Under the pieces are notes generated by a model. The model was not told the DNA's origin. It did no database searches and was given only the letters and a program-made list of their open reading frames with translations. Position numbers and translations under genes: made by a program. A stretch of DNA of 64,000 nt from Adineta ricciae (lineage: Eukaryota > Rotifera > Eurotatoria > Adinetida > Adinetidae): contig CAJNOJ010000077.1 in assembly GCA_905250025.1 (NCBI GenBank), positions 248,001 through 312,000 on the forward strand. Direction: 5' to 3'. Positions 1 to 46,876 of the stretch are shown here, in pieces. How positions within the stretch are numbered: the stretch's first letter is position 1; every line of letters begins with the position of its first letter.

Positions 1-49
1 CTAATTGGATATTATTAATTATCTTCAATCAAAAGCAAATCAAATACAA

Positions 50-6854: not shown

Positions 6855-7164
6855 TTCTCTGATATCCAGCCACTAGTGGAGAAGTTCGACTTTAGAATTT
6901 CACTCGCTTTACGTATCTTTCTTTCGCGGCGTGCTCTTATCAAAGTTATGAAAAGTCAACAGATAGACTTCAACTACGAGCATACAAGAATGTCGGTTCT
7001 TTCCAAGACGACTATTTGACACACGCTATTTAGGGCAACTGATAGTATGTGTATCTAATAGCTCCATCTGTTCGTCGTTGTTCTCTTTCGTCAATTTTGT
7101 TTGCTGGTCATAAAAAAAATGTAAAGACACATTCACTTTTTCGGTATCTTTTTCTGCCAGTGTA
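6855..7164. other. Divergent promoter interval, ART-TPR / COMMD5
   Basis: About 310 bases between two divergently transcribed start codons, so it should hold both promoters. I see no clear TATA box or repeated element. Confidence 0.4.
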
Positions 7165-19117: not shown

Positions 19118-22100
19118 TTAATTTGGAGAAGCCAAAAATTCATCAAAGTTTATTAGATCTTCATCAATTGACATCGATGGTGTCTAAAAATAAAAAGCAA
19201 AAAAAAATATAGATGACTAATTTCCAAAGCATGGAAAACATTTGGAAAGAACAGGTCGAGGATACGAATGGATATAAATATATTTAACCTTGCCCGAGCA
19301 GATGAATAGAAAAGTTATTTATTTGTATATTTTAGTAACTGTACGAAGAATGAAAGCGGGAGAAGATGTCTAGAGATAATTCGATGAGTTTGTCGATGTA
19401 GTACTGATCAAGAAAACTTCTGACACTGGTAAAACGATTAGCACATCTCAAGAATCTCATAGATTCTCCTTAGAGTCAATTTGTTTTACTTGATGTGTCA
19501 TTGATTGATTTGAAATGGTCTCCGGTGCTGGATGTAATTGAGCGCAGGTTGCGTTTGATTGTACACGATTTTGTAGATTAGGAATAATAGGTGATTGTTG
19601 GTATTGGCCATAGGTTCTCTCGTGTCCCGGTTGATTTGGAAAAGACGTAGATTGTAACTGTTGCTGGGATTGAGTCTGGATATTCACATGACGTAAGATT
19701 TCTGTCAGAAGCTCAGGTTGAGAGAGTGTGTACTGTAAGAGATACTCATGACTTAAGGGTTGACTGTGTTGCGAATTCGATGGCGAACTGATATTTTCCA
19801 TCAAGGAGTTGGATTGAGCAATGGATGCTGTAGAATAATCTCGAGTAGGAGATGCATAAGCCATCTGCGAAGAAAATCAAAATGAAGTCTACAGTGCAAG
19901 TCGAGTTTAACGAAAAACTTACATGATCATAAATGGAAGGAGGAGTAGCTGAGGGCGGAATTGAATCTGTACAGTTATCGAATTTCAATTGAATGTTTTT
20001 GAGAAAAAAATCTCTCTTACATGGATTATCAGCAAACATTTCTGCTAGGTCGGTGTGTGGTGTACTAGAAACAAGATGATCATTACTAGCACCAACAGCA
20101 GAACCATCACCAGGATCATCTCCATTCTCCACACTAGCATAGAAGAATACAAATCGAGCTGACTAGAAGTTTCATCGTACTTTAGAATGAAATTCGTGAT
20201 CGGTTTGTATTTTTCATTTGTTCTATAGATTTCATGCAATCGTTCGTCTAAAAATAACAAAATCAACCAAATTCCCACGAAATTTCAAAGTTCTTTCTGT
20301 TTACGGTAATATTCATCGAAATCCGTGAATAATCGATAGTTTTTCATACTGTTACTATTATCAATGTTGGCCAGAACTCGAATGTGACTGGCTCTTTCTG
20401 CATGAGCTGTGGTGACAAATTTCACAATATCATTTGACAAATTATTCGTATCAAATGTTCGATATTGAAATTTGTTCGTACGTTCTAAAAGAATCAATCC
20501 GTAGACTTAAACACAACTGAAAGCAAAGCACATCTCAACCAACTATTATAAATATCCACGCGAACAGCACATAAATACGGCTTGACGGATCTATTTGCAG
20601 CGGGAGACGAAGCAATTGATTTATACTCAATTTTAATCGAGTTCATACGTAAATCAACGATCGGTGCGTGAAGATCGGACGAGTTGATCATACACTCGGC
20701 AGCTCGATCGCTATTGCAAATACCAAGAAAGAGACTGTTGAAGAGAAACATAGAACAAGAAATCATGGCTAAAATATTCATATATGATAATATTTTACCC
20801 ATCGGCGTAGAACATGGAAAGAATTGGATGTTTGGCCATGAATTCAACTTGGTGAACGAATGGAACGACAAAATCCTATCGAGTCAAAACCGATAAGAAT
20901 GTGAACGTGTAGAAGAAAATGAAGTTTCTTACGAGAAAAACATCTTCTAACGTGTGAAAGCTTCTTCTTTCATCTACAAAGATCAGTTTCAATACTAACA
21001 GAGATCAATCATGATTTTCTTACTCTGTGCTCGTTTCAGTTCGTATTCAAGGTAGTTTTTCAGGCATTCGGCTGGTACCACACCTGTCCGCTGTTTGAAA
21101 TATCGCAACAAAAAGTTCTTTATCGTATTGACATCGATCGTTGTTGTCTGAATCGACAAGTATCCAAGGATAAATCTCGCGAAGCAATTATTTATTTACC
21201 TTGGAAAAGCGTCGAATATCATCAAGGATAACTCTTGATAACATGTGTGGTATATGATTATGATGAGAAGTAATAACAAATGACGATGATTCTAATGGAA
21301 TTTGATAGATTTGAGAGTACTTGTATTCGTTTAAATGTACCTAAACGAACAAAATCAGAAGAAAAGCTTCGATCGGAAGAATCTTTACATGAACTTTAAT
21401 AGCGAATTTCAGTGAATGTAGGGTTTCACTGAAGTGCATACGAGGATTATTTTTATTAGACGGTAGAATTGTCACAGAAGTTAATTCAGCGTATTGAATC
21501 ATTCGTGGTTTATCATCGGGGGAGATTTGTATTTGGCATGTTTTCCATGGCAATGTTTGAGATTCGTCAAGCTTATAATGAGTTGACAATGGCCATAAAC
21601 TCAACTCTGCAAAGATTTTGATGACGAAAAAGTCAATTTGAACTGATTCGGCTTACCTATATCATATAAATCGATGAAATTAGGATGCGACTGGATAAAA
21701 TCATGTAATAGCGAGACTATTGTGACTGATACTCTCACTGTATATTCAGCAGAGCCTGGTTTGCGATCATAGATAACAACAGGATTCGCACCGAAACGAG
21801 GCTGTGAAACAATTATAAACGAACTAGAAAAACAAATAGATATCGATAATGTTTGAGTCGTTCGAATTCAAAAGTTGATGATTACTTGCTCAGTATGTTG
21901 GGCAGTTCGCTGATACCAGTTTCGCGAAACTTCAGATCATTTCGCATTTTGTAATCGGTGATATAGGTAAGGTGTTCCGTTACTCTAATGAATTAAGTAA
22001 TGCTCAATGAGTGACTTTCAAGTTGTTGCCAGATACACGTACCTGTTTTGCAAATGAATTAAACTGGGTGGTTCTTTAGCTTCTTGATGGCTAATATAGA

Positions 22101-22800
22101 ATAAACGTCGCATATCTTGAGCCGTTCTCCGACGATTAAAGTCTAGTTCTCGTTGTCGAAAATCCTAGACAAATCCGAACGATTGATATGATGCTTGAGG
22201 ACGTTCACTCAACCTTACATTGGGATATGTGACTGTTTGATTTGGCGACTGATCTATTATTTTGAGTTTCATATCGAGACGAATATCAGAAATAAGTGGA
22301 AGAAACGTTGCAGTGTTCTACAATGAAAGCGTCGCTATCGTAGATTTGATCATAAGTGATGAGGACAAACCTGATTTATATATGCAATCAGACGATTTAG
22401 CATCAAACATTTCTCAACAGATGCTTCGATCATTGGAAGACTCAGTCGTTTCTCTTCTAAAGCTTTTGCATAATCCAAAGGTATCCTTCAACAATCACAG
22501 AGCTAGATCAACAAGTACACATCGAAAGCTTTTACCCTGATTGAGTGCGTCGTTCAATTTCATCCATGATTGATGAAAAATTGATTTCACCCACCGAATT
22601 GCGAATGAGAAATGCAAGCAAGCCGAATGTTTTATCAGAATATTCATTCGGGGCAAGAAATTCATAACATTGAAAAAGGCCCGTTTGAGTGATCTAAAAT
22701 ATTTTTTTTAGTCGACGTCTCTCATTCCTATTTGCTTTCGTCATCGACTCACCAATGGAAAGGCAGCTGACGGTGGCGAGGAAGCTAAATGGAATAACAT
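19118..22800 (-). CDS. STAT-like transcription factor 1 of a five-gene array
   Basis: STATs are cytoplasmic factors that dimerise through SH2-phosphotyrosine contacts and enter the nucleus to bind DNA. This multi-exon gene starts MLFHLASSPPSAAFPL, then has an N-terminal block (TGLFQCYEFLAPNEYSDKTF) and helical segments (DFRQRELDFNRRRTAQDMRR). The DNA-binding region opens with SSFIIVSQPRFG and contains MHFSETLHSLKFAIKVHV, like the STAT 'TEELH.L.FET' strand. The linker ends VEFMAKHPILSMFYADG, which runs into the SH2 domain (LFLGICNSDRAAEC). The SH2 Arg is in DLRMNS (codon 20647-20649), and the post-SH2 tyrosine is in NEKYKPI (20207-20209). The tail is Gln/Ser-rich and ends in an acidic motif, SIDEDLINFDEFL. 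Sequence is far from textbook STATs, so the family call rests on domain order and motifs. Confidence 0.7.
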
Positions 22801-24200
22801 CGATAGATCGATCAATATCTAGACAAATGAACACTTACATCTTGATGCTGGCCTTTTTTTATTCGATTTCATTGAAAACATGATGATTTCTCTTCCGAAC
22901 AAAAAGAGAATTTTATCTGAAAGGGGAGATCGAATCGAGTACTATTTCGTCAGCCATAGATTTCTGTCGAATGCAAAACACTGTAGTCGCACGTGGTCTA
23001 AATAACCTCAACAGTACTTATACGTGTCTCCTAAAGGAGAAATCCGAATCGGTGAAAGTTTCCCATTATTTTACATCATCTGTTTCAATATGAATATGTA
23101 GATTAAGACATTTTCCGCGGTAAAACATGAAAGAGCAAGAAAGGAGAGCGAGATTTTTGAAAACTTCGCCGAATAAATGGTTCTTTCTTCGAATGAATAT
23201 CCATCGAGCAATTACACACGCACTTAAAATGATATAAAAAGATATTTCGGATAAGTGATACTGGCATCTCATACTTACCTGTAAGCCCTAGAGTAATAAC
23301 AAAATTTCCTAGTAGTCTGAATAATTCGAGCGCAACGCTCGACGACAAACCTACAACGCGCCTTGAAGTATTCAAATTTGTCGACTGCGTCAGAAGAAAA
23401 GTTTTATCTATTCATTTTGCAACTGTATTCTTTATCTATACGATGAATAATCATGACTCATTCGATGTGGATTTGTAATCACGACAGTGTAAATATAAAT
23501 TTCAAGTTGATATGCTTGGCGTGGAGTATTCGCCAAATGCGTCTTAAACTGGAAAGTACTTTTTTCTTACCTTGGGGTTCACAGTGGTTATTCTTCGAAG
23601 AAATAACTCACTATGAGTTCGGCCACATACATTTACATGTACTGATGAAAGTTTTTATTTTCATAAATAAATTTCGACGTGTTCTATTTCGATTTTTGTC
23701 TGCAAAATTTTGTTCTTATTAAATGACTCGATAAATAGAACAAAGCAAATAAAAAAAAAAAAGGAAGGTTATACGATGAAAACTTTCTTTCTGTCGCATA
23801 CGAACAACGCACAAAGAGAAAGAAAAGAATAAAAATATAGAAATGTCGCGTTTTAAACTCATACAGTCAATATTGAATAGACGGTCTGATTTTCTCGGAA
23901 AGATGGAGTAGGAAATAGAGTATTGACATATTTTAAACAAGTAATAGTTTGAAATGTTTTTTTTTCGGTTTTCTATGCACATGACGAGATGAACGTTGAC
24001 GCGGAAAACATGTTAAAATGAATTATTCATTAAAAACGATACACGCTGATAGTTTTGTTTTAAAAAAAGTCAAGAATAGATGCATATTCACAGACTCTAT
24101 GTTAGACATTGTATAACGCAAATAATTGTCAAACAGGCTCTGGGCATAAATATTGGTCAAATTCACTTTTCGGTATCTAAAATGACAAGGAATCACGAAG
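22801..24200. other. Intergenic, STAT-like 1 to STAT-like 2
   Basis: 1.4 kb of AT-rich spacer carrying the promoter of gene 1 and the 3' end of gene 2. Several short ORFs exist (for example 23103-23375 and 23453-23722), but none resembles a protein or shows coding periodicity that I can see. Confidence 0.4.
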
Positions 24201-27200
24201 TTATGTTATGTTGGAAGGAAAGTGGGAAAAAACCTTTACCGATTCTATGTCGAGTACCGGCAAGTGGTCCATTTCATCGATTGCTGGGAAATCAACAGCA
24301 TCTTTCGAACAGAATACACTAGTATACGGAAGACCGTCCATTACATGAACTTGTACCGGCTCCGGTCGAGTCGTTTCCACGAGCGGTTGTTGCTGTTGGT
24401 GTGAAATATGAGGATAAAGCAATGAGTGTCCTCTGTACTCTTGAGTTGGTTGCAATGAAGGATTGTGATAAAAATGTTGTGCGTCTGGTTGTAAATTGTA
24501 ATAATCGACTTGAGGCTGAGTTGTATCACTACAATGCACAGATTGTGACGTAGCTGATAAATGTTGAGAGGACATCTGCGATGCTTGTGCTTGATTTGTC
24601 ATGTTCCATGCTGACGGCAAGATACTTAATTTGTACAACAATTTGCGCATCGAATCCTCGTTGCCAACAACGGATTCAATAAGTTTATCAACTAATTCTT
24701 CATTATCTATCGAAGTAATCGCATCATCTAAATACAACAAAATAGATAAGCTTGTGTAGGCTTCTTCATGTTACTCGGATTGTCACGATTGATTTTGTCA
24801 ACACTATTTTAGATTAGTGAGATATGCATTTCATTATATTTACATAATTGAACTTACGCATCAATGATATTATCAAGAGGTTTATAAGGTTCGATCGATG
24901 TACACATCGTAGTCAATTGTTCACCTAAAGACATCGCTGCAGTGACTTCTTGATGTATCTATGAGACTCACCGTAATATTTTCTACATTCATTCATTCGA
25001 ATACCAACAGGAGTTCGATCAATACTTGAGAGGAGAAACGTCTCGCTGGCTTTTTCTTTCGTAGTAGTGTAGATAAGACTGTTGAGTTCTGATATGAATT
25101 TAGTAGGATCCAGTGTAAAATGGTCGGGCAAGTTCTTCTTATCTAAGTAATTGAATAATCGTTATGAGAAGACGGTAAAGATATGATCTTTACGACATAC
25201 GATTAAAAATATCCACGCGAAATGCACACCCTGGAGGTTCGATAACCCTACCGACGATGCTTTTTTCTCCAATAGCGTTGTAATCAATCCTGATTGAATT
25301 CAAGCGAAATGCAACTAACAATGGGTGCGTCTTGGATAATTTTTCCAAACCGCTTTTCACTCGTTCACTATCACAAATGCCAAGAAATACTCTAGTAAAA
25401 GAACTCTATAGTATCATTCGTAATCAGTAGACCTCCTTACTTCGTATTGTAAAACATAGCTAATACAGGATGTCTGACCATGAATTCCACTTGATGCACA
25501 TATGATGCAAGAAAATCCTATTTGAAAAAAAGACGAGTAGACTATACGCATCCAATTATCAACGCTCAATTAACGAATGAATAATGAACAACATAGCAGT
25601 CTTATATCACATTGCACAACTTACCGTAAAACGTTCTTCATCTGTAGTAAAGTTTGACCTTTTGTCTAGAATTGAACCAATCGATTTGCCAATAATATTG
25701 ACTATGCGTATCGCTCACCTTTTGCTTCGTTTAATCCTGATTGAAGAAAATCCAAACTATGCTGTGTGATTAAGACACCGGTGCGATGAGCAAAGTATCT
25801 TGACAAGTAGGAAACGATCTTTTCGATGCTGGCTGATTGGTCCTAAAACCAAAGACATCCTATTTGATTTCTCCAATAAAAGCGAATCATACTCTGCAAT
25901 ATCTTCGTATATCGCACAGCAGAATACCGGCTAATAAGCGTGGAATTTGAGACGTGCGCTGTGCAATGGCAAATGGCAACGAAGTCAATGTTACTGAATG
26001 TGTTTTGTAGAAATTGTACTCTTTGCAATTGATCTGCAATTGAATAAACGTAGATTTTGAATGAACTGATCTTCGTACACTTACCTGGACGTCGATGGTG
26101 AGCTGAATTTGATGCAACTTCTGCGCGAATTGCACGGATGTATCATCTTCATTTGTTTGAACAATGCAAATAGACGGTAACTTAGCGTAATACATTCTTG
26201 TTGAATGATTTTTTGGATGTCCTTGCAGTTCACAGATCTCCCAAGATATTTCTTTCGGTTTTTTTAATTTGTAAGTATCCGCTGTTGGCAGTAAACTGAT
26301 TTCTATACGAATATTTCCTATTAGATCAAACTATCAGAGATAAACACTCGATATACTGATATCTTTTAATGTGAGGACATTCGGGTGCATTTTCATAAAA
26401 TCATGTAGCAAGGAAACAACTGTCATTGTCAATTTTGCATTGTATTCAGGTTCTGTTTTCTTATAGATGACTATTGGAATAGATCCATTGCAAGGATGTA
26501 CTGTGATCATAAATGAACTAGCAGAAATAAAAGAAGATGCTCGGCTTGCTTCGATCAAGAATAATATTACTTGTCAATAATACTCAACAACTCTTTGATG
26601 CCAATATCTTGAGATTTCGAACCGTTTAGTGCTCTTGCTTGGATGAAATAATTCAAATGTTCTGTCGTTCTGAAGAACTGAAATAGTATACATATCGTTT
26701 GACCTACGAAATACGACATACCGATTTTGTAAGTGAATTAAACTTGGCGGTCTTTGAGCCTCTGAGTGACTAAGGTAGAACAGACGTCGGAAATCTTGAG
26801 CGTGTTTACGACGAGCAAAATCTGATTCTCGTTGTCGGAAATCCTATAAAGAAATTCTATCCGCTGAAAATCATCGATTAGGCAAAGCTTACGTCTGGAT
26901 AACGAATCGTTTGATCATTTGCTTTGTCACTCATTTTATCTGTCATGTCTTCTTTAATTTGGTTGACAGTTGCAAGAAATGCTGCAGGATCCTGTAAAAA
27001 GTTTGCTTCCAATACGATTTCTAAAATGAACAGATGCTGAAATTTACTTGGTTGATCTGCGAAATCCATCGATTCATCATCAAGCATTTCTCAAGTGAGA
27101 TCTCCTTGCATTCTCGATATTCTCGTCCTAGTTCCCGTTCCAATACTTGCGAGTAAGCACACACGTTTCTTTTAAAACACACCGGCATCGAACTTATTAA

Positions 27201-27563
27201 GTGTAAATTCCGTTTAATCTTACTCGCGCTGACCGCGTCTTTCGACTTCGTCTATGATCGACGAAAAATTGATTTCGCCAACCGAATTTCGTACGAGCCA
27301 TGCAAGTACACCAAATGTTCTCTCGGAATATTCATTCGGAGCGAGAAATTCATAACAATTGAAGAGACCAGATCGTACTTCCTATCGAAAATATTTTACC
27401 AATCTGGTGTTTCATATTTCCAAAATAATAGAAAACCGTTACCTGTGGCGATTGTGACGATACTAGAAGAAGTCGGAAAATTTTACGTAAAATAGTCAGC
27501 AAAGAAGAACTACATACAATCTGCTATCGATCTTGGCCGTTTACTTGACTTTCTCTCTGACAT
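24201..27563 (-). CDS. STAT-like transcription factor 2 of the array
   Basis: Closest relative of gene 1: its N-terminal block reads SGLFNCYEFLAPNEYSERTF followed by WLVRNSVGEINFSSII, and the helix reads DFRQRESDFARRKHAQDFRR. The inferred first exon (MSERKSSKRPRSIAD, ATG at 27563) is basic and NLS-like. The DNA-binding region begins SSFMITVHPCNGSIPIVIYK and includes FAQKLHQIQLTIDVQ. The SH2 Arg is in FRLNSIRIDY (codon 25304-25306), and the candidate tyrosine is in SIEPYKPLDNI (24884-24886). The tail is Gln/His/Ser-rich with a Tyr-Asn-Leu-Gln (YxxQ) motif and an acidic end (DFPAIDEMDHLPVLDIE). Its tail sequence differs from gene 1. The stop is at 24201-24203. Exon borders near the start are inferred from phase. 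Confidence 0.7.
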
Positions 27564-28183
27564 TAGCGCGACTTTCAGAGAAGAAAAAACAAACTGTTTT
27601 GACGCGAAACGAGGTAGTAAAAAGTCCCGTGAGACGAAAGATATATCACGAATAAAACGGCTGTTGGTTGAAGTGGTAATATTCAGCAGCTGCAGTCGAA
27701 TCACTTTCTTTTCCTTTCCAAGCACATTTATACTCTTATGTGATTCACGAGTATGAATTTGGTCACCAGTGACTCAAAACAATAGAAACCTGTGATATTT
27801 CTTTGCCTACAGAACGAACAATTTTTTTTTTCAAAAGAAAAAAGGCTTTCCTGTACTTTTTTTCGTTGCCAATGTCAATATTGCAGCGTTTGCTTCGAAT
27901 TCGACGAAGGAGAAACGTACGCAACACGTCATTAAATCAACTGGAATATTCCTACATTCAACGTTCACGAAACACTTCAGAAATAACTAATTTCTCAATG
28001 ACGATATGTACTCCGCATATGCAGAAGAATTAACCCCACAGCTGTGACGAAGATTAATAACTACTTCATGAGATTTATTTCGCAGTTCGAAAAGATAAGG
28101 TTCACACAATTAAACAAAACCTATTTGTATGCACACTCGTGTATTCACATCTTGACTATTCGAAGTGTTGTACAAGCTTCTTT
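27564..28183. other. Intergenic, STAT-like 2 to STAT-like 3
   Basis: About 620 bases; promoter side of gene 2 and 3' side of gene 3. No gene supported. Confidence 0.4.
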
Positions 28184-31100
28184 TTAATTATCCGATGAAG
28201 TACTACACGGCGAGCTGTTCGAATTCGATGAAGGCGTTGATGTCTAAACGAAAAAGATTTATTGAATGATTAGGATTTGATCCGATTCACACCTGAGTTG
28301 AAGCTTCGCTACATTTGTGTAATTGCAAACATTCGGATAAGATCTTGGCCAAAAGCTCTTTTTGATTAGTCTCCGTTAAACTCAAGAGATGCATAGATGC
28401 TTCAGCAGCAGATGATTTAGTAGATTTCATCAACAAATCAATGAATTTGTCCACTACACGACAAATGACTGTGTCAGTTCGTGCAACCATCTTTTCAGTT
28501 GTTTGTAAAAATTGATGATTAGTGACCAATGGATGAGAAATGTCAACTAGATATATAGAAGGTAGTTTTTATGTAAAAAAAGACAAGGGTGTTGAGTTCT
28601 TACTTTCCATGGCAGATACTTTACTATGGCTCATATCGACCGGTTGAGGTTCTAGTTGCAGCGTATGACAAACTAAAGGTAAGAAGAGTTAACTAGAAGA
28701 AAGCTGTATTTAAAAGTACCAGATTGTTCTTCCTTAGGATCGCCATTTGTCCTCCTAAATATATAAAAATGAAATAACAATATTCAAGCGAATGTGTTAA
28801 TTTACATCGTATTCCAAAGGATTGGTATGAATGGTTGATAAGCATCTTTCAACGGTGCTGCAGCTGTATCAAGTCGAAACAATTCATTGTCTAGAATGAT
28901 TGATCAGAATTTTGCTTAGTGTATGAAACAGTCACTCTCTCACCGAAATAGGTAATGAAATCGTGGAAAGTGCGATTGTTTTCATAAGAGAAGACACGTA
29001 TTTGTTTTGCTTTTTCCAAATTTGCTTCGCTGATCATTCGACACATTTCATCGACAAATGCCTTTCCGTGAAAAGTCGCTCTTATCAATTGACCTAGATG
29101 AACGCTTGATTGTTAACAAGAACTGCTAAATGCTGTACAAACCATTATGAACGATGAATCGAACGGATGCATGCTGAACTGGTTGATGTGTGGCTAACGT
29201 ATTCAAGCGAAGTAGAATGTGTGGTTCTTCACCAGTACCGCGTAGGCACTGATCCACAGCACTATTGCAGATGCCAAGAAATAAACTAAAGACAAAGAGT
29301 TGACTCTTAAAAGTCTAGGAAACGTTTTTCTGATACCCGTCGTGATACATCATGGAAAGAAAAGGATGATCTATGAAGACTTCCATTTGACTAATTATCT
29401 GAGCTAAGACATCCTGCAGAAAACAACAATAAGACAATGGGTTTGAACATATCTCGTGATACCGACTTCATAGATACTAAAGGGCGCTGCTAATTGCCCG
29501 TCTTTTCGTCCTTCTAAACAAAAAAAAACCGTTCATTTCGATCCAAACTATGGATTTTCGTCTCTCATACCATAAGCTAATCGCAAAACGTGTTCGATAT
29601 ATTCATAGGTATGTTGTTTCATTGCTACACCTGAAATTTTCCCATAATATCGAGCCACATAGCCTGTGATCAGAGCAGATGGAATCGATGATTCTTTCTA
29701 AAGAAACAATTATATGAATTTCCAGTCTAAGCTCCTCAAAACAGTGCTCGTTTCATACAGGTTGCACTTGTTGTGCCACTTGATAGAGAATCGCTTTAGC
29801 CACATATTCTGGATAATACTGAGCATGTGAACAGAGCCCAAACGGTTCAGACAGATAAGTTAGATTTTGCTCGATATTATAAGTTTTTGTCTATAGAAAT
29901 CGATTGATAAACACATATTGAATATCAAATGAAGCACTTACCCTGATTCTGCTATGAAATTGTATTTGACAAAGTTTAGCACTGTATAACGGTCTAGTAT
30001 TTCGAATATCCAATTTTTGCAGCATGATCGAATCGAGTTCTGCATAGAGGAAAGTGATTTTTTGATCGTTCGCATCTGTCACTTCTCTTTGACACCACTT
30101 CAAGGTCGGCTGACTTTCCCCGAATCCGTCGATCTTTCGATCGAATGGGAAAAGTGTCACATCTTGAAAACAAAAAAACAAGATTGATTGTCAAGGTTAT
30201 TGTAATCCTTACTAATATCATCAAGGTAGAAATGCGTGGCAATCAGCTCAGGATCGAGAAGGCATATTACTCTCGAATATAGTTTCGCTACATATTTGTC
30301 GTTGGTTTTTTCATATTTCGTCGCCGCGACACATTCAGGAATCGATGGTTGAGTAACAATGATAAACGAACTAAACATATCAAGTCGATTCGATAGGTCC
30401 GATAAGAAGAAACATATTTGTATACTAGTGAAGCAATTTTTTCAGATGATTCTGATTTTCTTCTGTTGGATTGACACGATATGAGTTTAGATACTGACCA
30501 CAAAGTTTATTAACACTAAATAAAGAGAGATATATATTGCAAAACCAAAGGAGACTGTGGTTGAAATGAAATTTACAATTGATATAGAGTTAATAGACTC
30601 TCTAGGCGAGTAACTTCACCATAATGCATATTAAATAAACGCCGTTGGCATTGTAAACGTCGCCAAAGGAGTACTTGATTATAAAAGTCCTCACCTGACT
30701 AGAAAACAACGATTCTGTCTTTTCATTCGAATCAAATTTCACTCGATGAATTACCCATGTTGAGAAAGATGCTGTCGTCATACGTTTCTTGATTTCTTCA
30801 TACAATTCTCCAGTGAGTTGAGCAAATTTACAAGGATCCTGCAAAAGAATCAGCTGATTGTAATAATGTTAATGAAGATCAGACGTACCTTTGTACATTC
30901 GGAGATCAATCGATTAAGCATAAAACATTTTTCAACGGAATGAACATTAGATTTGAGATTTCGTCGTTCCCGGGTTAATAAACTTGACCAACTAATTTTC
31001 AGGCTAAACTTAAACAAGATGAACATCTATCGACATGAATTATCCTAATCACCTCCGTTGGTATAAAGTTGAAAAGGATAAGTTAATCAATCGTTTCGTT

Positions 31101-31346
31101 GCCAGAAAAGAAATCAAACCAACCGTTTGACTATTGATTTCATTCGAGACTAAAAAGTCTTGATCATTTGACATGTCCGATGTAGTTAGATGATTGAAAT
31201 TATTCGTAGTCACTCCTTCCATATAAACTGGTGAATTTGACGCTAGATGATTTAGTGTATATATAGAGAGAGAGAAGATAAATCGAATTATTAAGCTTAC
31301 CAGATCGCTTCTTTCCTCGTCTGGGTGTTGAGTTTTCGGTCGTCAT
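28184..31346 (-). CDS. STAT-like transcription factor 3 of the array
   Basis: This is the gene whose exons I traced most fully, about 17 to 18 with tiny introns. It starts with a basic exon, MTTENSTPRRGKKRSG, then VGLISFLATKRLINLSFSTL and helices such as WRRLQCQRRLFNMHYGEV. The DNA-binding region opens YSFIIVTQPSIPECVAATKY, and the block FGLCSHAQYYPEYVAKAILY matches the STAT 'LPVVVISN...WASILWYN' region. The SH2 entry is MMYHDG-LFLGICNSAVDQC and the SH2 core EEPHILLRLNTLA (Arg codon 29217-29219), close to the STAT 'PGTFLLRFSES'. The candidate tyrosine is in LKDAYQPFIPILW (28838-28840). The tail has a helical block and a Ser/Thr/Asn-rich end. Stop at 28184-28186. Confidence 0.75.
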
Positions 31347-31781
31347 ATTAACTTTCTCTTTATCTTACTGACATGATCGTTCGTTGAAAGGCGTCGATTA
31401 AATACTTGCTTCCAATTCATTTTTTCCTGGATATATTCGTTTCTCCATGAGCTGAGATAAAACAATCACTATACTGGTGATTGTAGAGTGAAGAAATTTG
31501 ATATTTCAGAGAAATTCTCTTCATTCTGACTAAGGCCGCTTGCCTTTCGCCGAAAAAGAAAAGTGTAACTTCTTTTTATTTGTTTTCAGAAAGAAAAGAG
31601 AACCGCTTATATTTGTTCCTATTTAATAAGAAAGAAACCAACACAATCGTCCTTGTCAACATAGTTGAAGGGTCACATGTGAGAAGAGGAAAAGACATGA
31701 AATGCTGATATATATTGTTCAAGGCTACTGAACACGTTTATTTTTTTTAATATTTTAGAACATTAATTCAATTGAAGACAT
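31347..31781. other. Intergenic, STAT-like 3 to STAT-like 4
   Basis: About 435 AT-rich bases between tandem genes, holding the promoter of gene 3. Nothing else is seen. Confidence 0.4.
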
Positions 31782-34472
31782 TCATAGATGATCTGAGCAA
31801 TCGTGCTCGCCAAAAAGTCCAATATCATCATCGGAAAGAAAAAAAGTATCCCTCAAAATATCGAGTTCATCTGTATATGGTTTGATCGCGCTGGGAGCAA
31901 CGGTACCGCTGATTTGATACTTTTCACACAGATCCGTGACGTATCTTCTCAAATCAGTCATTGCTTGTGTCACCGAGGTAAAGTTTCCGTTAAACTCTCC
32001 CGTAAAGTAACATGTTGATGAAGCATTCTGCTCGTCAGATATTGGAGACTGATCTGATCTGAAAATCAAACAAATCATTACGGTAAACAAAACGACCATC
32101 TTTATTTACGCAGTATTGGGCGTGAGGATGTTTGCTGAATGAAAAATACTATTGTTATTCGATTGCATCAAATGACTACGACTCAATCCACTATCTATGA
32201 AAGTAAAGTGAAGGTGAGATTTTGTAAGAAAACAAAATTTAGAGTATTACCATAGTATAAATTAAACGTCGAGAAAGGAAGAAGTTGATCCTCAGCGAAG
32301 ATTTGTAGGGAATTATCGGTTATTTCATCACAATATCGACAAATATCATTGAGTAGGTATTCAAAGCTGATACGTGATGTCGACAGGGTGTCTAAAGAAG
32401 TCTTGCTAGTATTTGAATACAAAGTTCTTCTACAAACCATCGAATTTCACCACGATGAAGTCGGGATAGTTTTTCGGATCTTGTAAAGTAAAATTCTCGA
32501 AACGTATTAGTATTTTCGTCGAAGTTGATTCCGTCTTTTCCAGTTCTTTATCGTAGATTTCACTCGTTATTCCGCGACAAAGACTAAAAGAACGAGTTAG
32601 CGAGAAAATTATGAAGAGCAAAAGAAAATTGAAATCTTACTTGTCATGATACATTAACGCTAGACATGGTTGATTATCTAAGAAACGAATTTGACTGAAT
32701 AGGTTTGCCATAAAATCCTAATCAATAAAAAACAAATTCTAGTCGAATCAAATTGGAAAAAATGTATATCCGACTTCGTAGATGTTCAAAGAAACGATTA
32801 GGACAGGAGCCGTTGGAGACGCTGCACGTTTCTCGCACAATTCATAAAACCTGTGCATTTGATCGACTAGAAACGACAGCGTATGTAGTTTGATGTCCAC
32901 TCCAGTGACACGTTTATAAAACTTTGCGATATATTCTTTTAAAATGTTGGCATGAAACGTAGGATTTATCTAAAGAGAAACCAAGTAAGGAAAACAGTTG
33001 AGACACGTTTGCTTACATGTCGATGCATCTCTTCGACTTCATTTAGAAACACTTTTGCTAAATATTTCGGATAATATTTCGCGTGAGAACATAGTCCGAA
33101 GAGTTTCGAAGTATAGATAACAGGATATGCATAGAAAATTTCGTTTATCTTCACCCGGAATACCGTTTGAAACCTAAGTTTGCACAGCATTTTGTTAAAG
33201 GAAGGTTTGCCATTGTCATTCAATTTTGTTAATTTTAAACACTCGGTCTCCTTCAGTTCGTAATAACCAAATATTCGCTCGGTGTTTTCTTTCGTCATGA
33301 TTGTTCGCGTTTTATACACGAGAGCCGCTTGTAGATCGCCGTCGGCCTCATCTCCTTCTCTTTGAAGTGTCATCTCTGTTCACAAGAACAATATATTTTC
33401 AATCAGCACATCGAATGACAAGGCACTCTACCTGTATTTGATAGGGTTAAGTATTCTTGTGTGCGAATGGGGTCCAAAAGACAGAGAATCCTTGTCTTTA
33501 ATTTTGCAACAAAATTATTCGCTTCTTTTTCGTATTTAGTTGCTGCTATACAATCCGTCCCACATGGCTGTACGACAATCAGCAATGAACTAAATGTATG
33601 GGTTGAGAAATTAACCGAAGTGATCGAAGAAAAAAGACGTACTGTTGAAATAATTCGAGAAGAATTTGTTCCTGAAAAGAATGAGAATTTTGCTGGAATG
33701 AATGCATCACATTGAGAAATTGATCTGTCATCCTAGGAAATGGTCAATTGCATAAGTAACAACAAGAAAACAACAACAACAACATACAATCGCTGCAGTG
33801 TAAGTAGATTGCAGGGTTGAACACACTCTTCGAAGAACAAGCGCCGTCGACATTGAATCTGTCTCCATGCCTGTACTGTTCCATATAATTGTGACGGAGT
33901 ATAAAACATTGGTTCACAGGGTATTGTATCTGAAAGTTGATTCTGGATTGATTCGATCAATTGTGAAATCTGTTGATTCATGTGATTGTTATTCTAAATA
34001 GAAGCAAAAGTGACATTGAAGTCTTTGTTTCAAGCCATTATACTTCAGCATATGCGTGAATTAATCGATTGATCACAAATCGCTTCGGCTTGGCTTTATC
34101 ATCTAGTTTTAATCTACTTCGCTCGTCGATTAGTAATTGTCTTCGTTCATTCTCATCACTAACAAAAAAAGAATTTAACTGAAAAATATATCACACTATT
34201 TATATATATATATATATATATATCTACCTTTTCTCAAATAAATTCCAAAATGAATGGTGCATCACTCGACCGGATAATAGTATCCATAGAAATGGATCCT
34301 GAACATTGATGGGTCCTGTAAGAAATTCGAAATCACTTGTGAAACTTCGTGATTTGGTTCGGTTGAGAAGTCGTGATATGTCTAAGTATTGAAATTATTT
34401 CCGAGATGATCTATTCGAAGAAAATCAATTACTGTGTTTCCTTCGTTTATTTGTTTTGCATACTTTCGACAT
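31782..34472 (-). CDS. STAT-like transcription factor 4 of the array (no post-SH2 Tyr motif)
   Basis: Same architecture as genes 3 and 5 but the shortest. The inferred first exon is basic (MSKVCKTNKRRKH, ATG at 34472), followed by VQDPFLWILLSGRVMHHSFW and a helix WRQIQCRRRLFFEECV. The DNA-binding region starts SSLLIVVQPCGTDCIAATKY and includes LFGLCSHAKYYPKYLAKVFL. The linker ends FLDNQPCLALMYHDK, and the SH2 core is TKILIRFENFT (Arg codon 32502-32504). The exon after the SH2 domain reads SGLSRSHLMQSNNNSIFHS and has no Tyr-x-Pro, unlike the other four genes. The tail is short and acidic (FFLSDDDIGLFGEHDCSDHL). A protein able to bind phosphotyrosine but lacking its own site could act as a decoy or regulator; that is inference. 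Confidence 0.7.
34201..34223. repeat. (TA)n microsatellite in an intron of STAT-like 4
   Basis: A run of about eleven TA dinucleotides lies between two N-terminal exons of STAT-like gene 4. Confidence 0.85.
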
Positions 34473-36252
34473 CCTTCTCTGTTTTCGACGAATCCTAAAA
34501 CATTGAATTACTCATCTTCAATTCACGACATATAATCTTCGAAAATTTTTTTGTCGCAGAAAGAATGAATTCAACACAAGTGGAGAAATAACACCTTTTT
34601 TTCTTTTCATCCTCCTTTTATTTCGAAGACATAAGAGTAAATAAGTGTGCCTACTAACATTAAACTACGTTTCTATGCTGCAGATCGCTGTTTGTTTTCT
34701 ATTTGAGGTGGAATTACTTACTTCGTACTGAAATGGAGTTGTTATCTCTTTCTAAGTTGATGTTAAAGTTACCAGGTCGACTTTTTAGAAGAGAGCGTTT
34801 GGATTATACGAAAATTATCTAAAAGATTCGCTCGTAAGCTTAATTTGCCGTGGAAGATATCACGAATAAGAGATAAATAGATAGAGTTGATTCAATTCTT
34901 GACTTATTTATGGCTGATGATGATTTAAGTGGGAAAATTGTGTTTGATATTTCGGGATTATTTGCAATCATCGAAGTTTGGAACACTGAAGAAATCTGAT
35001 GTAGTACAATAGCTGCGAAGACTATAAAGGAAAATTCAATTAAGATACACAGATGATTAGTCTTACTTGAAGAATCCATTTGATTTTTGAATTCGAATTT
35101 GAGTAAACTTGTTTCTTATATTTACAAAATATCTGTCTTTGTCAGATATGTACACTGGAAGACAAATCTTACATACTTTCCACAAGATGAAAGTCGCCAA
35201 ACCTTCTCCTAAACAGATCTACAAATGATAATTCAATTGCTTATAGAGTAATGGTTGACAGAGTCGGTATCTGGTTTGAGTATATAAAGAAGTGCACAAA
35301 TGCTTGTACATTTTCAATTAGAAGTCAGCGACACTATTCTTTTGCTACTCTATTATCAATTAACGCTGTTATGGAGGCAACTCGATCAAAACAATGACAA
35401 AAGATTAATTCTTCAAACTTTTATATTTGCTTTTGCTTAGCTTGGGTTTTTGCCAACCTTAATGTTGGTAACACTTTCTTCCATTCTGATTACGAACATC
35501 AGCTACTACCGTCAACGCAAAATCATGTATTTACATTGTCATTAGCCAAGATCATTCTGAAAATGCTGTCACATTTCGTAAGTGTCTGTCATAGTAGAAA
35601 ATTCGAGAAATCAAGACTATTGCATCAAACAACATTCTTTTAAATAGTTAATCTCTACTCGAAAATTATTGACTAGATAGAGAAGTTATCATGTGGCCAA
35701 CGTAGACTTTCATACTTGAAGAACGCGACATGGATCGTTATCGTATAGGTAGTCGTAAATTGCACGACATATAATAAAGCGAGTCAGATATGGCTATCAT
35801 CGATTCGCGTTGTCTGAAAGTTCTCCGCTTCGTCAAAGCAACGTACATAACTTATGAAGTTTTGATAGATGGCCTAAACGGTAAATTTTATTTTTGAATG
35901 GATTTCATCATGTTTCTGGAATGTACCATGTAAGTTAGTATTCATTGTTGTTTGTCCTTCATTTATACAATACATTTATTTGTAGTAGAACTCTCATCTA
36001 ACCTTTGCTTCTTTCAAACGGTCAATTTGACATGAGCAAAAGTAAGTGCATAGATTTAGATTTTTAGCATAAAGGATAGAGACACTTCTTTTTGTCCGAA
36101 TCGGTAGAAGTGTAACGAGAAAATTTCGGACGCGATTGATATACTGTTGATGTACTCTTAGATTTTCGGCAAAATAATCAATCATTGGATGATTTAGTTC
36201 TCAATTAAAAATAAAAGATTTCTTTCTGATAAAAAGATATTAAAAAATCACT
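34473..36252. other. Gap in the STAT array, possible minor or relic genes
   Basis: This 1.8 kb stretch separates STAT-like 4 and 5. It has a plus-strand TATA-like box (TATATAAAG at about 35280) with no long ORF after it. On the minus strand, two short frames occur: 34840-35079 (about 65 residues if a 40-nt intron is removed, MDSSIFAAIVLHQISS...) and 35994-36185 (MIDYFAENLRVHQQYINRVR...). Neither shows a STAT motif. They could be small unknown genes or relics, and I cannot tell which. Confidence 0.3.
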
Positions 36253-39200
36253 TTAGGGCACGATGATTCTGCTGGATACAGTTTCGTAGGCAAAATCATA
36301 AGGCTCGTCTTTGATTTTGATTGATTCTACTGAGTCATCACTTCGTGTTTGTAAATCCGTTTTCGACAGCTATGAAATAGAAACTCTTGAAGAATGCGTA
36401 ACGTCTTTGTAATGACTTACTTCCGACGAAGAATCCGAATCATCAGGTGACTGCTCGGTAGGTGAAGTTATTCGTTGCGAACTGTGCAAGTATTTTAAAT
36501 CTGTCATCGATAGGATGGACGGTTCAGGTCGAATAAAATAACTCGATGGTACAGCTTCGTTTTGATTATTGATTACTGTGGATAATTTTTCACTTAAATA
36601 TCGAAATATCACATCGGGAGAGATGTTGATATCAGTTGGCATCTCGATTAACCATTGGCATTTCTTTTTCACATCTTGAGAATCGGTCGTTGATTGAATT
36701 TGTTCGGTAGTTTTTGATGATTTTTCAGATGCTGAAAACGAATGTTGTCAAGTAATCTATTCTTAGAAATACATCATCGCTTACTGGAATCAGAGCTTTG
36801 GCTCTGAGGACTATTAATGTGCAGGACGATATTCACTGGAATTGGTAGGTTTTCCGATGCAACGGAGTCGATGGTTGGAAATGAATCAGAACGTGATCGT
36901 TTGTTTCGTGGCAGTCTCTCGTTTAAGAGTAGATGTCTGTCGGAAGTATATTGATCATCATTTTTTCTCCTGAAACGAAAAACAAAATGGACCATTTTGA
37001 GAAAAGTCCATCGAGTGAATGAAATCTTTACATTGTCATCCAGAGAATTGGCAGTAAAGGATCATAGGCATCACTATTCGGTGGCGACATTTTATTCAAT
37101 CGATACAATTCATCATCTAAATCGAATACAACAAGTTGAATTTTTATTTCAAGATTGCCGGCGTTACTTACGAAAATACCATTGGAAATTTGTGAAATAT
37201 CGTGGCGAAATGGTAGATAGCACAAGTGCTTGTTTAGTTTTTAGATTCACAGATTCACAGATCAATCGACAGAGTTCGTTCACAAATGATTTCGAATCAA
37301 AAGTTGCTCGTCTTAGTTCTCCTACATATTAAACGAATTTCTTACTGATTGGCAAACAAAAATGTTCAAGAGATTTCTTTACCGTCATGAATTATAAATC
37401 GTACAACAGCATTACTGTTCCATTGATGTTTGACAAGTGTATTAAAACGTAGTAGCAGTTGAGGTTGTTCACGAGTACCTTCTAACGATCGATCAACGTC
37501 AAGGCTATCGCATATACCCAGAAACAGTCTACATGAGTCAATATGAGGCAAGTCCTTTGTATGGAATCATTTCTTACCCATCATCGTATAACAACAAAAG
37601 AACTGGATGTAAAACCAAATAATCGATCTGGCTGATGATTTTGGTTAAAATATCCTATTTTAAGGATAAGAAGATCAATTTGAACGATGTGAAACTTCTC
37701 CTACTTCGAATACGTGATCCAAAGTGTTGACGGAATGTTTGTTTTTCATATCTAAGCATGGAGAAAGTGTATCGAATAGAGAAGTGTTCTGAATAGAGCG
37801 ATTTTACCATTAATGGCTTGTGTGAACACATTGCAAATGTATCGACTCGTGTGATCGGTTAATTCGAAGCCAGTGGTTCGTGTATAATATCGTCGAACGA
37901 AATCCGTGATGACATTCGGATCAGTGTGCAGTCTTTGCTAAGATTGAATAAAAATCGAAATAAATTCTCAAGAAAAAAAACGCACTTTTCTGCTTACGTC
38001 CTTGACAATTTGTTTCATTTCGTAGAGAAATATTTGTGCAACAAATTTGGGAAAATATTGAGCATGAGAGCAAATGCCAAATGGTTGAGAAGTGAGAACA
38101 ATATTTTCTTCAAAATCGAAATCTACGGCCTAGTGGTATTCATCAGTGGATCATCAGTCAATGGGTGATGAAAATGAATTACTTTGACTTTGAATCGAAA
38201 TTCCAATTGGCAAAGTGTTGAATTCAATGAAAGACGTTTACTATCCGAATCATTCTTTCCCAATTTCAGCGTGTGAAATTCGGCACAGAGCAATGAAACG
38301 GAATTACCTTCAGCATCCATCACTTTTCTTACTTCCCATTTGATAGACATTTGCTTCTCTTTTTTATCATTGCCTTCTCGAAGCAGTGGATAAAGTGTCA
38401 CATCTAACAATAGACATTCAAACATTCGAAAATCGTCAATCGAAATGTTTATACCGATATCGGAAAGTGTGATCAAATTTTGAAGGATCACAGGGTCCAA
38501 TAGACAAACAATACGCGTATTCATTCTAGCAAAATGTCCAGTGCTACTTTTAATATACTGAGTTGCAGCTGCACCTTCCGATCCAGTTGGTTGCGCGACA
38601 ATAATAAACGAACTGTTGCAATTATCAAGCAAGCTATTCATAGAAAAATACTTCGAATATAACTTACTGTTGAAAGTGCTCTGAACAACGCGGACGACCT
38701 TCTGTTTGCCATAGGTTCTTATTCTCTCGATAGTAATTTGTTAAACAATGACACCAATTTGTCGCCCTACAAGGTTCATTGTTTATTTCAGAATATTTTT
38801 AATCGGAAATACATACGCTTTTTGTAACATCAATAAACCCGGTAGTTGTACTAATTCCTCGTGATTGAAATAAAACAAACGTCGACGGCATTGAAAATCT
38901 CTCCAACGTCGAACTTCTTGAAATAAATCTTGCGAAGTCTAGATCATACGCGATTGGACCTCTTCACTACACGATACTCGACTTACCCATGATGGAAAAT
39001 TAGTTGTCATACGAGCTTTCACTTCATTGTACAACGTTTGTGTTCTCTGAACGAATATTTGTGGATTCTAAAAACATTCATACATCATGCTTCTGAGAAG
39101 TATCATTTTTCACTCGAAGAAAAAACATATATGAGTCAACTATGGCAACGGATGTTCTTTCACTATCGATCAAATGAAAAATAAATCAATTGCACTCGAC

Positions 39201-39756
39201 CGTTCTTTTCTCATGGGCGGATAATGTCCTTGATTAGTGCTTTCTATTGCACTTCAAAATACTGAGTTATCAATACATTTATGACAACAAACCGAACTTG
39301 GTGTACCCTTACCTGTAGATATTCGTGCAACAGCCGATCTATGACCATACATTTCGAAACTGATATTTCATTAGGTTTGAGTTTCTGTCGATCTTGTGCA
39401 AGTACTTTCTCCCATCCTATTTTTGAACTGGATACAAGAAAAAAAATCATAATACGATCGAGACAATTCTTCTGTTTACCTTGATTGATACAATTTGGAA
39501 AAGGAGACATCGTTTATATGCTGATTAGTCAGAATGGAAAGCGAGCCAATACTGCTCGCAGGTATTTCATACGGCGCAATGAATTTGTGATCAGTAAATA
39601 AGTCGTACAAGTCCTGATGATTGTTTGTTGGATGTATGTCAATATTACCTAAGAAAATCAATAAAAAATTTCTCTAAGAAACGATGAAATATTCATTTTT
39701 ACGTGTTTTATCTAATTTGATTGTCGTCATCGACTTTTCCGCTTTGTTTTTTGTCA
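36253..39756 (-). CDS. STAT-like transcription factor 5 of the array
   Basis: It begins MTKNKAEKSMTTIKLDKT and continues with IGSLSILTNQHINDVSFSKL, aligning with genes 3 and 4. Helices include VRRWRDFQCRRRLFYFNHEE. The DNA-binding region opens NSSFIIVAQPTGSEGAAATQ and contains LNSTLCQLEFRFKVKV. The SH2 entry is LFLGICDSLDVDR and the SH2 core QPQLLLRFNTLVKHQ (Arg codon 37447-37449), the most STAT-like of the five. The post-SH2 tyrosine is in NSDAYDPLLPILW (37064-37066), near-identical to gene 3. The C-terminus is Ser/Asp-rich and ends with SVESIKIKDEPYDFAYE, where IKDE fits the SUMO-acceptor consensus and lies beside further tyrosines. The stop is at 36253-36255. Confidence 0.75.
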
Positions 39757-43377
<3,621 letters not shown>

Positions 43378-43854: not shown

Positions 43855-45347
43855 TTAAACATCGGAGAGTCCGTACGAGGCGTAGGTGTACTGATAAGGA
43901 GAAACATATTGATTATCGAATTCAAGATGTCGAAAAGCGACAGGTGAGATTATTGATCGATCGTCAACGCCATCACGATCGGAATAATTATTATTATATT
44001 TCGAGCGACTTTGTCCACCTTCTAAATGACGAAATGCTTCCGTATTAATATAAGATTTGGTTTCGATTGCTGGACCCATGGATGAATGTATAGATTTATT
44101 TCTCGAATTTGATCCAAAACCTTCAATATAGCGAAAGGCGTTTGGATTCACGTATGATCGTTCGTCAATGCCACTTTCGACGTTATTTCGTTTTTCGACA
44201 CGATGTTCGACGTAACGAAAAGCATTTGGATTAACATACGATCGTTCGTCGATGTCAGGTCCATCGAAAACTTGACGTCTGGTTTGCTTTCCTTCGACCC
44301 ATTTAAATGCTTCTGGATTGACGATAGGCCGATCGTCAATCGATGATTGGGCTGTTGGCTTTTTCGCCAATGTGCGATTTTCAATATACTGAAAAGCTTT
44401 CGGATTAACAATTGCCCTTCTATCCACACCTGGTTGAATATCACGATGAATAGGAAAGGAGTTTTTCTCCAAATAACGAAATGCATTTGGATTCACAATT
44501 GGTTCACTGTCGATTCCACTTTCGACGGTCTTTTTCGGCGATATTCTGTGTTTTTCTATAAATCGAAATGCATCTGGATTGATAATTGGCCGCGTGTCAA
44601 TCGACGGTTCGTTCGATTGATTGATGGGTACTTTCTGACGTCGACCATCGATATATCTACAAAAGAAAACAAATAGATCAAATAAAAAAACATGACTAAT
44701 TACTTGAAGGCATCAGGATTTGTAATTGGTCTATCGTCGATTCCACTGGTCACGTTTTGGCCTTGTTTATTCACTTTATTTGTTCTTCCTTCGACGTACC
44801 GAAAGGCATTGGCATCGACGATTGATCGCTCATCGATGCCTCCTTTGGGTCCATCGTCACCGCGTAGGCGATTGTTTTTTTCTATTTGTTGCTGGCGCCG
44901 ACGTTCTAATTGTACCACAGCATCAAGGTTAATAATTGGCCGAGAATCAATTCCACTCTCCATACCATCGGAGTCCGGTTTCTTCTTTCCTTTTCGTTCA
45001 TTTGAATTCAAATATTGAAAAGCGCGAGGATCAATTATTGGTGAATCATCAATTTCAGCACGGTTGTTTCTCTGAGAAAAATTCAAATGCTGTGCTTGTT
45101 GTTTTCCATGAGTAACATAGAACGGTCTTGGGTGATTAGTATTCGCTGATAAAGCCGGATTAACGCGGCGCGTAGGCGTCGGGGGAAGATTGCTTCTGAT
45201 GGGAGATGTCGGTTGATAATGTTGAGCATGAAATGTTCGATTGTTCTGTTGTTGTTGATGATGATAATTATTATTACTATATGGAGCAGGCGTCGGTGAA
45301 GGTGATGAATAATGATAACCGCTAGTAAAACTACGTATGGGATACAT
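43855..45347 (-). CDS. Protein of twelve ~30-residue '[GS]IDxRxIVNPxAFRYIE' repeats
   Basis: I do not recognise this family. Two exons separated by a 47-nt intron (44657-44703) encode about 480 residues. The first ~100 residues are Ser/Pro/Asn/Gln-rich. After that come twelve tandem units whose core is [G/S]-[I/V]-D-x-R-x-[I/Y]-[V/I]-N-P-x-A-F-[R/Q/K]-[Y/F/H]-[I/V/L]-E, spaced by basic, variable 12-20-residue linkers (for example GIDERSYVNPNAFRYVE). Units 9 and 10 are almost identical in the core, unit 2 is the most degenerate, and units 11-12 drift. There are no cysteines and no membrane segment, so it is probably intracellular. The start is taken at the ATG at 45347; an in-frame ATG at 45425 would add a mildly hydrophobic 26-residue leader. 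The regular short motif suggests a scaffold with many identical binding sites. Confidence 0.8.
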
Positions 45348-46876
45348 CGTTGCAGTGTGTACAGAAACAGTGAAAGAAGCAGAAACAATAATAGATGATG
45401 AAACGAGATTTACAGAAAAAGACACTCTCCATACATTTTCTCCTTCTCTACGTATAGATATATCTTTCTTTTCCCCTTTCTTCCCTTATTTACTAAGTGA
45501 GTGTTACAGAAGCAAGGCATCAAATTAGTCTTACTGAGGATACCAAAAATAAGGCGAAACAGTAGTTTTCTACTCCTGTGTATATTGACATCCTGTTTAT
45601 GCGCTGAAAAAACATCGAAGAGAAATAGAAGTTCGACATTTTTTGCTTTGCCTTGTTGATATTGATGGGTCTCGTCCTATCACACATATCCGATCGTTAT
45701 TCTTGTATTTGTTAACGATATACTAAAGAAGGAAAGCGATTAAACTCATGCTTATCTGACGCTTCTCATTAATAATCTTTCCTGTCAGTTATCAAATTGG
45801 TTCGACTATTAAGACAGATTTCTCAGCAACATTTGCTCTACACGGATCAAATCCGTTCGAAATTCACACATCTCGCAAACTTTCTTTTCTCGAGAGAAAG
45901 AACATAATGAGAGTGCTTGTATTGTAGACGGAAATCCCTACTATTTGTTATCATAAGCAGGATATGTTACTCTTGATTTTATATAGATTCAATAATGTGC
46001 TGTAATCTAGATCAAATTCTTTGCAATAGAATATCGAAATCCAGTTGTATTTGTTTATTTCGAAGACTCACTCTCAGTCGTACAAGGTGACATGTTTTGA
46101 CATAGACGTTTCTCGCATATCAGCAAATTGACGAGTTGCAGAAGCGATGGTCAATTATTTTGTTACAGAAGATATTCATCATCAAACAGATCTAAACACG
46201 ATAGATGTCAATTTTCAAGAAAGAATTATTGTATGCAACTTCTTATTGACTACTATTTTAATGTTATTCTTGTCAATTCAGTATGGAGACAGAATAGGTA
46301 AAACGAAGAAAGTATTGCACATTTGTGATTGTATATCTGTACCTATAACGGATGACAATGACGTCATCAAAGATTGAAGTTTGAGAATTACTTATGTATT
46401 CCATAAACTCTTGTGCTGATTTAGTGAAGTCGGTATCAAAGTTCGAAAATATCTTGAGGGTATCCGTGATCCAAAACAAGAACCATCGAAAACGCTTCAA
46501 GCGTAAAATTTCTTCTGAAGCCTCATATTTTCCAAGACTTTACTTCCTACACACTGATGTACATTCTAGTCAATTGTTCTTTCACAAAAATTCACCGGGT
46601 AGACCGTTCATCACGAAAGAAAGTTTCATTTATTATTGCATTTTATTTCAATATACGTTTTCATCTTAGAATTAGAAGAACTACACAATTTCTATATGAT
46701 ATTGTTGAATAGAGAACATACATCTTTGACGGTTACATGGAAACAAATCAATTATTGTAGCTTGAACAACCCGTACACAATAAACAACGAAGAGAAAAGA
46801 AACAAAACTAGGTGAGAAACAATGTACAAGAATTTGTTTTTGAATGAATGCGGACGCGTTTGTTATTGTCTTCTTA
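45348..46876. other. Intergenic, repeat-protein gene to H2A.Z
   Basis: About 1.5 kb. ORFs at 46147-46377 (+) and 46394-46669 (+) were inspected; neither has recognisable content. No RNA gene seen. Confidence 0.4.

What the first reader, a model, noticed from the sequence alone, without database searches (positions are those of the whole stretch)
19118..39756. Five consecutive divergent STAT-like genes in one tandem array
Five minus-strand, intron-rich genes in 20.6 kb share one domain order and aligned motifs: a basic N-terminus in most, a helical region, a 'SF[IM]I(V/T)..P' DNA-binding start, a linker, an SH2 core and a variable tail. The motifs FLGIC, [L/I/F]R[L/F/M][N/E], WASILWY-like FGLCSHA..YP.Y.AK and ETLHSL-like strands fit STATs (seen plus family knowledge). 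Many invertebrates have one or two STATs, so a linked set of five divergent ones would be a marked expansion of cytokine/JAK-type or immune-type signalling in this lineage (inference). I know of no description of such an array.
Basis: partly seen in the sequence, partly recalled or inferred. Interest (0 to 1): 0.9.

Follow-up and report, generated by a model that had tools for sequence, protein, structure and literature searches.

The report
Hidden STAT gene array in bdelloids
A microscopic bdelloid rotifer carries five neighbouring genes whose proteins are predicted to fold like STATs, the animal proteins that carry signals from the cell surface to genes, although ordinary sequence searches do not recognise them.

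The parts
36253..39757 (-). gene A, 799 aa, 18 exons, divergent STAT
   Evidence: gene model; best relative A. vaga I4U23_025500 at 71%; aligned with the folded C; no fold of A itself was made
31782..34472 (-). gene B, 680 aa, 13 exons, longest branch in the tree; F at the tail-tyrosine position
   Evidence: tree; SH2 Arg kept (alignment); no fold of B itself was made
28184..31346 (-). gene C, 734 aa, 19 exons; AF2 model matches STATs
   Evidence: identical to P0001; AF2; Foldseek; VIA
24129..27563 (-). gene D, 806 aa, 19 exons; Arg instead of His at the predicted base-contact position
   Evidence: identical to P0051; no fold of D itself was made
19118..22881 (-). gene E, 823 aa, 20 exons (last exon 19183-19118 tentative)
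   Evidence: 98% identical to P0034 (804 aa), whose AF2 model matches STATs
29143..29285 (-). gene C exon with the linker/SH2 joint (FLGIC) and the SH2 beta-B arginine (R496, aligned to STAT1 R602)
   Evidence: exon; hhalign; conservation
23165..23602 (.). four TTCN3GAA (STAT-type) sites upstream of gene E, starting at 23165, 23185, 23591, 23594 (last two overlap)
27574..28232 (.). three TTCN3GAA sites upstream of gene D, starting at 27574, 27900, 28224 (the last lies inside gene C's last exon)
31380..31554 (.). three TTCN3GAA sites upstream of gene C, starting at 31380, 31505, 31546
34484..34492 (.). TTCN3GAA site upstream of gene B
39894..40307 (.). two TTCN3GAA sites upstream of gene A, starting at 39894 and 40299

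Best explanation
The array encodes five paralogous, highly divergent STAT transcription factors of a bdelloid-specific family. Each has, in order, a short basic N-terminus, a helical region shorter than in STAT1, a STAT DNA-binding barrel, a STAT linker, an SH2 domain with the phosphate-binding arginine, and a variable tail that may activate transcription. Proposed working, with the status of each step. (1) A tyrosine kinase, not a recognisable JAK, phosphorylates a tyrosine just after the SH2 domain (Y585 of C) in A, C, D and E: inferred. (2) The SH2 domain of one subunit binds that phosphotyrosine of another, giving homo- or heterodimers among the paralogues: inferred from fold and from Arg and Tyr conservation. 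(3) Dimers bind TTCN3GAA-type sites: supported by the STAT fold and by site enrichment, not measured. (4) Such sites in front of the array genes make the family regulate its own expression: supported by statistics only. (5) Trigger and other targets are unknown; a stress or immune role is plausible and untested. B, which has F at the tyrosine position, would act as a modifier in heterodimers or by another route: inferred.
Against: No sequence profile recognises STAT or SH2 in any of 42 members, and profile A1 did not beat shuffles (9 of 120 reached its score); the A2 E-value is weak (0.014). The phosphate pocket is only partly STAT-like: at the position of STAT1 K584 there is S in 29, N in 6, K in 3 and D in 3 of 41 rows, and two residues after the arginine there is N in 37 of 41 (STAT1: S). 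From the SH2 arginine to the tail tyrosine there are 105-113 residues in 20 bdelloid rows, more than the 76-99 of the three STATs compared (19 rows have 79-90). Other C-type proteins do have 1-3 later tyrosines. The P0034 model is below pLDDT 50 in part of its barrel, 231-251. The site enrichment was sought after the fold was known and rests on five linked promoters; TTCGAA without spacer is also over-represented (10 against 3.75); one N3 site lies inside a coding exon and two overlap. No expression, phosphorylation or binding data were available.
Confidence: 0.8

Rival explanations
1. The proteins are STAT-fold factors that no longer use phosphotyrosine: constitutive or unphosphorylated STAT-like DNA-binding proteins whose SH2 domain is only a structural or protein-binding module.
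For: The lysine and serine positions of the phosphate pocket are mostly replaced; no JAK FERM domain was found; gene B and two of three B relatives in A2 have F at the tail tyrosine.
Against: The arginine is kept in 41 of 41 rows across otherwise very divergent proteins and the tyrosine in 39 of 41, which is hard to explain without phosphate binding.
Confidence: 0.25
2. The proteins are not STATs by descent but another Ig-fold DNA-binding family (velvet, T-box, Rel/NFAT, p53 or CudA-like) joined to an SH2-like domain.
For: Velvet and T-box barrels appear among lower VIA matches of C; no Pfam STAT match.
Confidence: 0.04
3. The array was gained by horizontal transfer from a protist with Dictyostelium- or choanoflagellate-type STATs rather than by divergence of the animal STAT.
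For: Bdelloid genomes show elevated horizontal transfer (abstract start of PMC11258130); no canonical animal STAT was found beside the array; all 54 relatives found are bdelloid.
Confidence: 0.12
4. The TTCN3GAA excess is a composition effect or a site for another factor, and there is no autoregulation.
For: TTCGAA (spacer 0) is also in excess, 10 against 3.75; the five promoters are linked and were tested after the fact.
Against: Dinucleotide shuffles of the same DNA never reached 13 in 1000; heat-shock spacing (N2) is at expectation (2 against 2.1); half-sites are kept on C8, in two cases with altered spacers.
Confidence: 0.35

Closest known systems
Metazoan STAT family (STAT1, STAT3, STAT5, STAT6)
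   Same: Order of barrel, linker and SH2; SH2 arginine; F..Y motif with a following tyrosine; TTCN3GAA sites upstream of the genes
   Different: 11-15% identity in the significant Foldseek hits of C, no Pfam match, 216 residues before the barrel in C against about 315 in STAT1, pocket residues changed, five linked genes
STAT5/STAT6
   Different: Five of six D-type rows carry arginine there; upstream sites favour N3, not the N4 spacing of STAT6
Dictyostelium STATa
   Same: STAT core fold; [quoted passage not shown]
C. elegans STA-1/STA-2
   Same: STAT-like genes in an animal described without a JAK homologue (PMC13203501, passages)
   Different: Not compared by sequence here; not described there as an array of five

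Membership tests
STAT | STAT core fold: beta-barrel DNA-binding domain, helical linker and SH2 in this order | tested here: met
   C; E type, P0034; A, B and D by alignment only
STAT | SH2 beta-B arginine (STAT1 R602) | tested here: met
   41 of 41 rows with a letter; alignment to R602 by hhalign
STAT | A tyrosine shortly after the SH2 domain that is phosphorylated | tested here: inconclusive
   Y in 39 of 41 rows; spacing from the F..Y motif fits, from the arginine only partly; F in B; phosphorylation not testable here
STAT | Match to curated STAT profiles | tested here: not met
   0 of 5 window proteins and 0 of 42 relatives with a STAT or SH2 match; control STAT1 fragment matches STAT_bind at 4e-46. 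Profile detection is a matter of sensitivity and does not define the family by descent
STAT | Long four-helix coiled coil and separate N-terminal domain | tested here: inconclusive
STAT | Binding to TTCN3/4GAA as a dimer | tested here: inconclusive
   Site enrichment and conservation upstream of the genes; no binding data
JAK-STAT pathway | A JAK with FERM-SH2-pseudokinase-kinase in the genome | tested here: inconclusive
   PF17887 no match, PF18377 one hit at E 2.07 below the cut-off, exon-wise and without a positive-control genome; kinase domains were not searched

The most novel reading that the evidence does not exclude
Bdelloid rotifers have no canonical STAT or JAK and instead run a rebuilt, self-regulating STAT network: an old array of five paralogues, present on two contigs of this genome and shared in large part by Adineta and Rotaria, whose members can form many dimer pairs, one of them without the activating tyrosine, driven by a kinase other than JAK.
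Probability: 0.35. Interest if true: 0.85.

Novelty: new variant of a known kind. Interest (0 to 1): 0.72.

Why it matters
A 2026 survey of the pathway in animals reports no STAT in flatworms and nematodes and holds the word rotifer nowhere in its main text (PMC13203501, passages and term counts). Here are proteins with the STAT fold that the curated profiles do not see at all, so reported absences may be failures of detection (inference). Bdelloids are attacked by fungi, and the study of their antifungal response says it focused on horizontally acquired genes and did not closely explore the animal genes (PMC11258130, passages). The array gives candidate regulators with explicit residues (R496, Y585, H364 of C) and promoter sites to test.

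Tried and rejected
Pfam STAT searches of the own genome: STAT_bind and STAT_linker nothing at E<=0.001. At E<=10 STAT_bind gave one hit, on C325, a glutamine-rich low-complexity stretch, and STAT_alpha gave four; the one on C169 was read and lies in a protein that looks Pex14-like to me (recalled, no search), its near twin on C207 and the hits on C9 and C42 were not read. The human STAT1 stretch gave nothing at E<=10. No animal control genome was available, so none of this proves absence. None of the 72 SH2 matches of the genome lies inside the window.

Weak Pfam names on single proteins (RA_2, GPR128_GAIN, Pas_Saposin and others) lie below their cut-offs or are scattered, and were dismissed. 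NCBIfam gave only scattered bacterial names. PDB sequence searches with E, A1 and A3 gave no STAT. Non-STAT rows of the VIA lists (velvet, TRAP, T-box; Spt6, SHP2, SYK and other SH2 domains) score far lower.

I first took FLGIC for the SH2 arginine strand with its arginine lost; the alignment shows it is the linker/SH2 joint, and the arginine lies about 20 residues later. I also first took Y585 for a tyrosine inside the SH2 domain; its spacing from the F..Y motif fits the tail tyrosine better, but this assignment is mine and not settled.

Literature: ten searches. Those on rotifer or bdelloid STATs listed no paper that describes them as far as titles, abstract starts and, for PMC8878817, passages show (STAT and JAK only in a cited title). 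One search listed 12 of 57 papers, none with Brachionus. Only the open-licence library was searched. Passages, not whole papers, were seen of PMC11258130, PMC13203501, PMC3296744, PMC5359187 and PMC8878817.

Full report
What is there. The window lies on contig C77 of a 130-Mb genome. Two full-length identical protein records name the species as the bdelloid rotifer Adineta ricciae. Five genes on the minus strand follow each other; the gaps between them were not searched for other genes. A home-made exon chainer that demands GT..AG introns, plus hand correction of boundaries against the paralogues, gave models with 18, 13, 19, 19 and 20 exons. Of 84 introns 82 are 46-107 bases. Models C and D agree with database proteins over their whole length and E at 98%, so the splicing is borne out by independent annotation for these three. 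A and B have no identical record among the 53 proteins compared.

Sequence searches do not see what it is. Pfam finds no STAT and no SH2 in the five proteins at E<=10 nor in 42 relatives at E<=1. The same library recognises a STAT1 fragment at 4e-46, 1e-27 and 1.9e-8 for its three domains. PDB sequence searches with one protein and two profiles give no STAT.

Register. A local hhalign of profile A2 with a STAT1 stretch aligned C 217-499 with STAT1 from SFVVERQP to LLRFSE, including PFGLCSHAQYYP with PVVVISNVSQLP and DGLFLGICNS with DGCIMGFISK. The E-value is weak (0.014), but none of 120 shuffles reached the score; the same holds for A3, not for A1, where 9 of 120 did.

Functional residues (A2 rows). 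R496 of C, aligned to R602 of STAT1, is arginine in 41 of 41 rows. Y585 is tyrosine in 39 of 41 and phenylalanine in two B-type rows; P587 follows in 38 of 40. Y585 stands 18 or 22 residues after a conserved F..Y motif; in STAT5A, STAT6 and STAT1 the tail tyrosine stands 15, 16 and 24 after theirs (that these are the phosphorylated ones is recalled). From the arginine the distance is 79-90 in 19 rows, 105-113 in 20 rows, and 76, 79, 99 in the three STATs, so the fit is partial. The window's gene C has no later tyrosine, other C-type proteins up to three. H364, aligned to STAT1 N460, is His in 35 of 40 rows and Arg in five, all D-type. In STAT6 the matching residue H415 is described as directly contacting DNA, and STAT5 has H471 (PMC5359187, passages). 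Against a fully standard pocket: the K584 position is S in 29, N in 6, K in 3 and D in 3 of 41 rows, and the S604 position is N in 37 of 41.

Relatives and age. Three searches of 5.8 billion proteins returned 33, 24 and 34 hits, 54 different proteins, all from Adineta, Rotaria or Didymodactylos. The method needs shared five-residue words, so more distant animals could be missed. A quick tree (45 of the 53 proteins then in hand plus the five models; eight near-duplicates or odd models left out) separates A/B/C from D/E with SH-aLRT 100. The B, C and E groups hold both Adineta and Rotaria rows, A and D only Adineta rows, and a further group is seen in A. steineri and Rotaria. The tool warns that the long A and B branches meet, so the order within A/B/C is unsure. 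A. vaga locus tags 025500, 025503, 025504 and 025505 belong to A, C, D and E, which suggests that the array is kept there.

Copies in this genome. A search with C hits the window array, C8 and a lone C-like gene on C7, 987.7-990.1 kb. All five genes have a C8 counterpart: exons matched 18/18, 13/13, 19/19, 17/19 (exons under 30 bases not tried) and 20/20, dS 0.12-0.17, dN/dS 0.27-0.39. Whether C8 is the allelic or a homoeologous copy was not decided. C8 is 1,031,924 bases long, the contig length given for P0002, P0035 and P0050. Unlinked D/E-type copies were not counted because that search did not complete.

No canonical STAT or JAK seen. STAT_bind, STAT_linker and STAT_alpha profiles and the STAT1 stretch gave nothing credible; two JAK FERM-region profiles likewise. 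These searches work exon by exon, and no animal genome with a known STAT was available as a positive control, so absence is not shown.

Promoters. I counted TTCN3GAA and TTCN4GAA, the two spacings described for STATs (PMC5359187), in the 800 bases upstream of each start codon. N3: 2, 1, 3, 3, 4 for A-E, 13 in all, against 3.4 at the window rate (0 of 2000 random placements reach it) and 3.1 in dinucleotide shuffles (0 of 1000, maximum 12). N4: 5 against 3.0, reached by 192 of 1000 shuffles. Spacers 0 to 10 in both orders were then scanned as control: N3 is the largest; spacer 0 is also raised, 10 against 3.75, and so is spacer 9, 7 against 2.75; spacer 2 (heat-shock type, recalled) is not. On C8 the same regions hold 14 N3 sites against 5.1 at the local rate. 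Of the 13 window sites 12 keep both half-sites at the aligned place, against 104 of 165 other dyads in the same regions (one-sided Fisher 0.026), and in two kept sites the spacer changed. The lone C7 gene has two sites 35 bases apart upstream. This was an after-the-fact test on linked promoters, one site lies in gene C's last exon and two overlap, so I treat it as support, not proof.

Verdict. Two members are STATs by predicted fold, and all five share the order and the key residues of that core; that they work by phosphotyrosine-driven dimerisation is likely but inferred. In print, fly has one STAT, sea squirt two, and mammals seven with up to three adjacent (PMC3296744, passages); an array of five that profile searches cannot see is a new variant of a known kind.

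Noticed in passing
window 40704-43377 +: Alpha-glucosidase-like gene next to the array (alpha-amylase domain 6.4e-56 on 41274-42056; gene ends read by eye); a bacterial origin is only a guess.
   Followed up: no
window 5106-6872 -: Single open frame with an ADP-ribosyltransferase-like domain and TPR repeats.
   Followed up: no
window 43857-45485 -: Open frames with many copies of a short motif like IDERSYVNPNAFRYVE; no family search was made on them.
   Followed up: no
window 5-1174 + and 61008-61889 +: Rhodopsin-type receptor domains (7tm_1) near both ends of the window.
   Followed up: no
G000 C77:230870-230992 and C8:76141-76260: SH2 matches lie near both copies of the array, outside the window.
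   Followed up: no
G000 C325:63760-63966, C169:62574-62738: Weak STAT profile hits; the first is a glutamine-rich stretch, the second lies in a protein that looks unrelated to STATs.
   Followed up: partly
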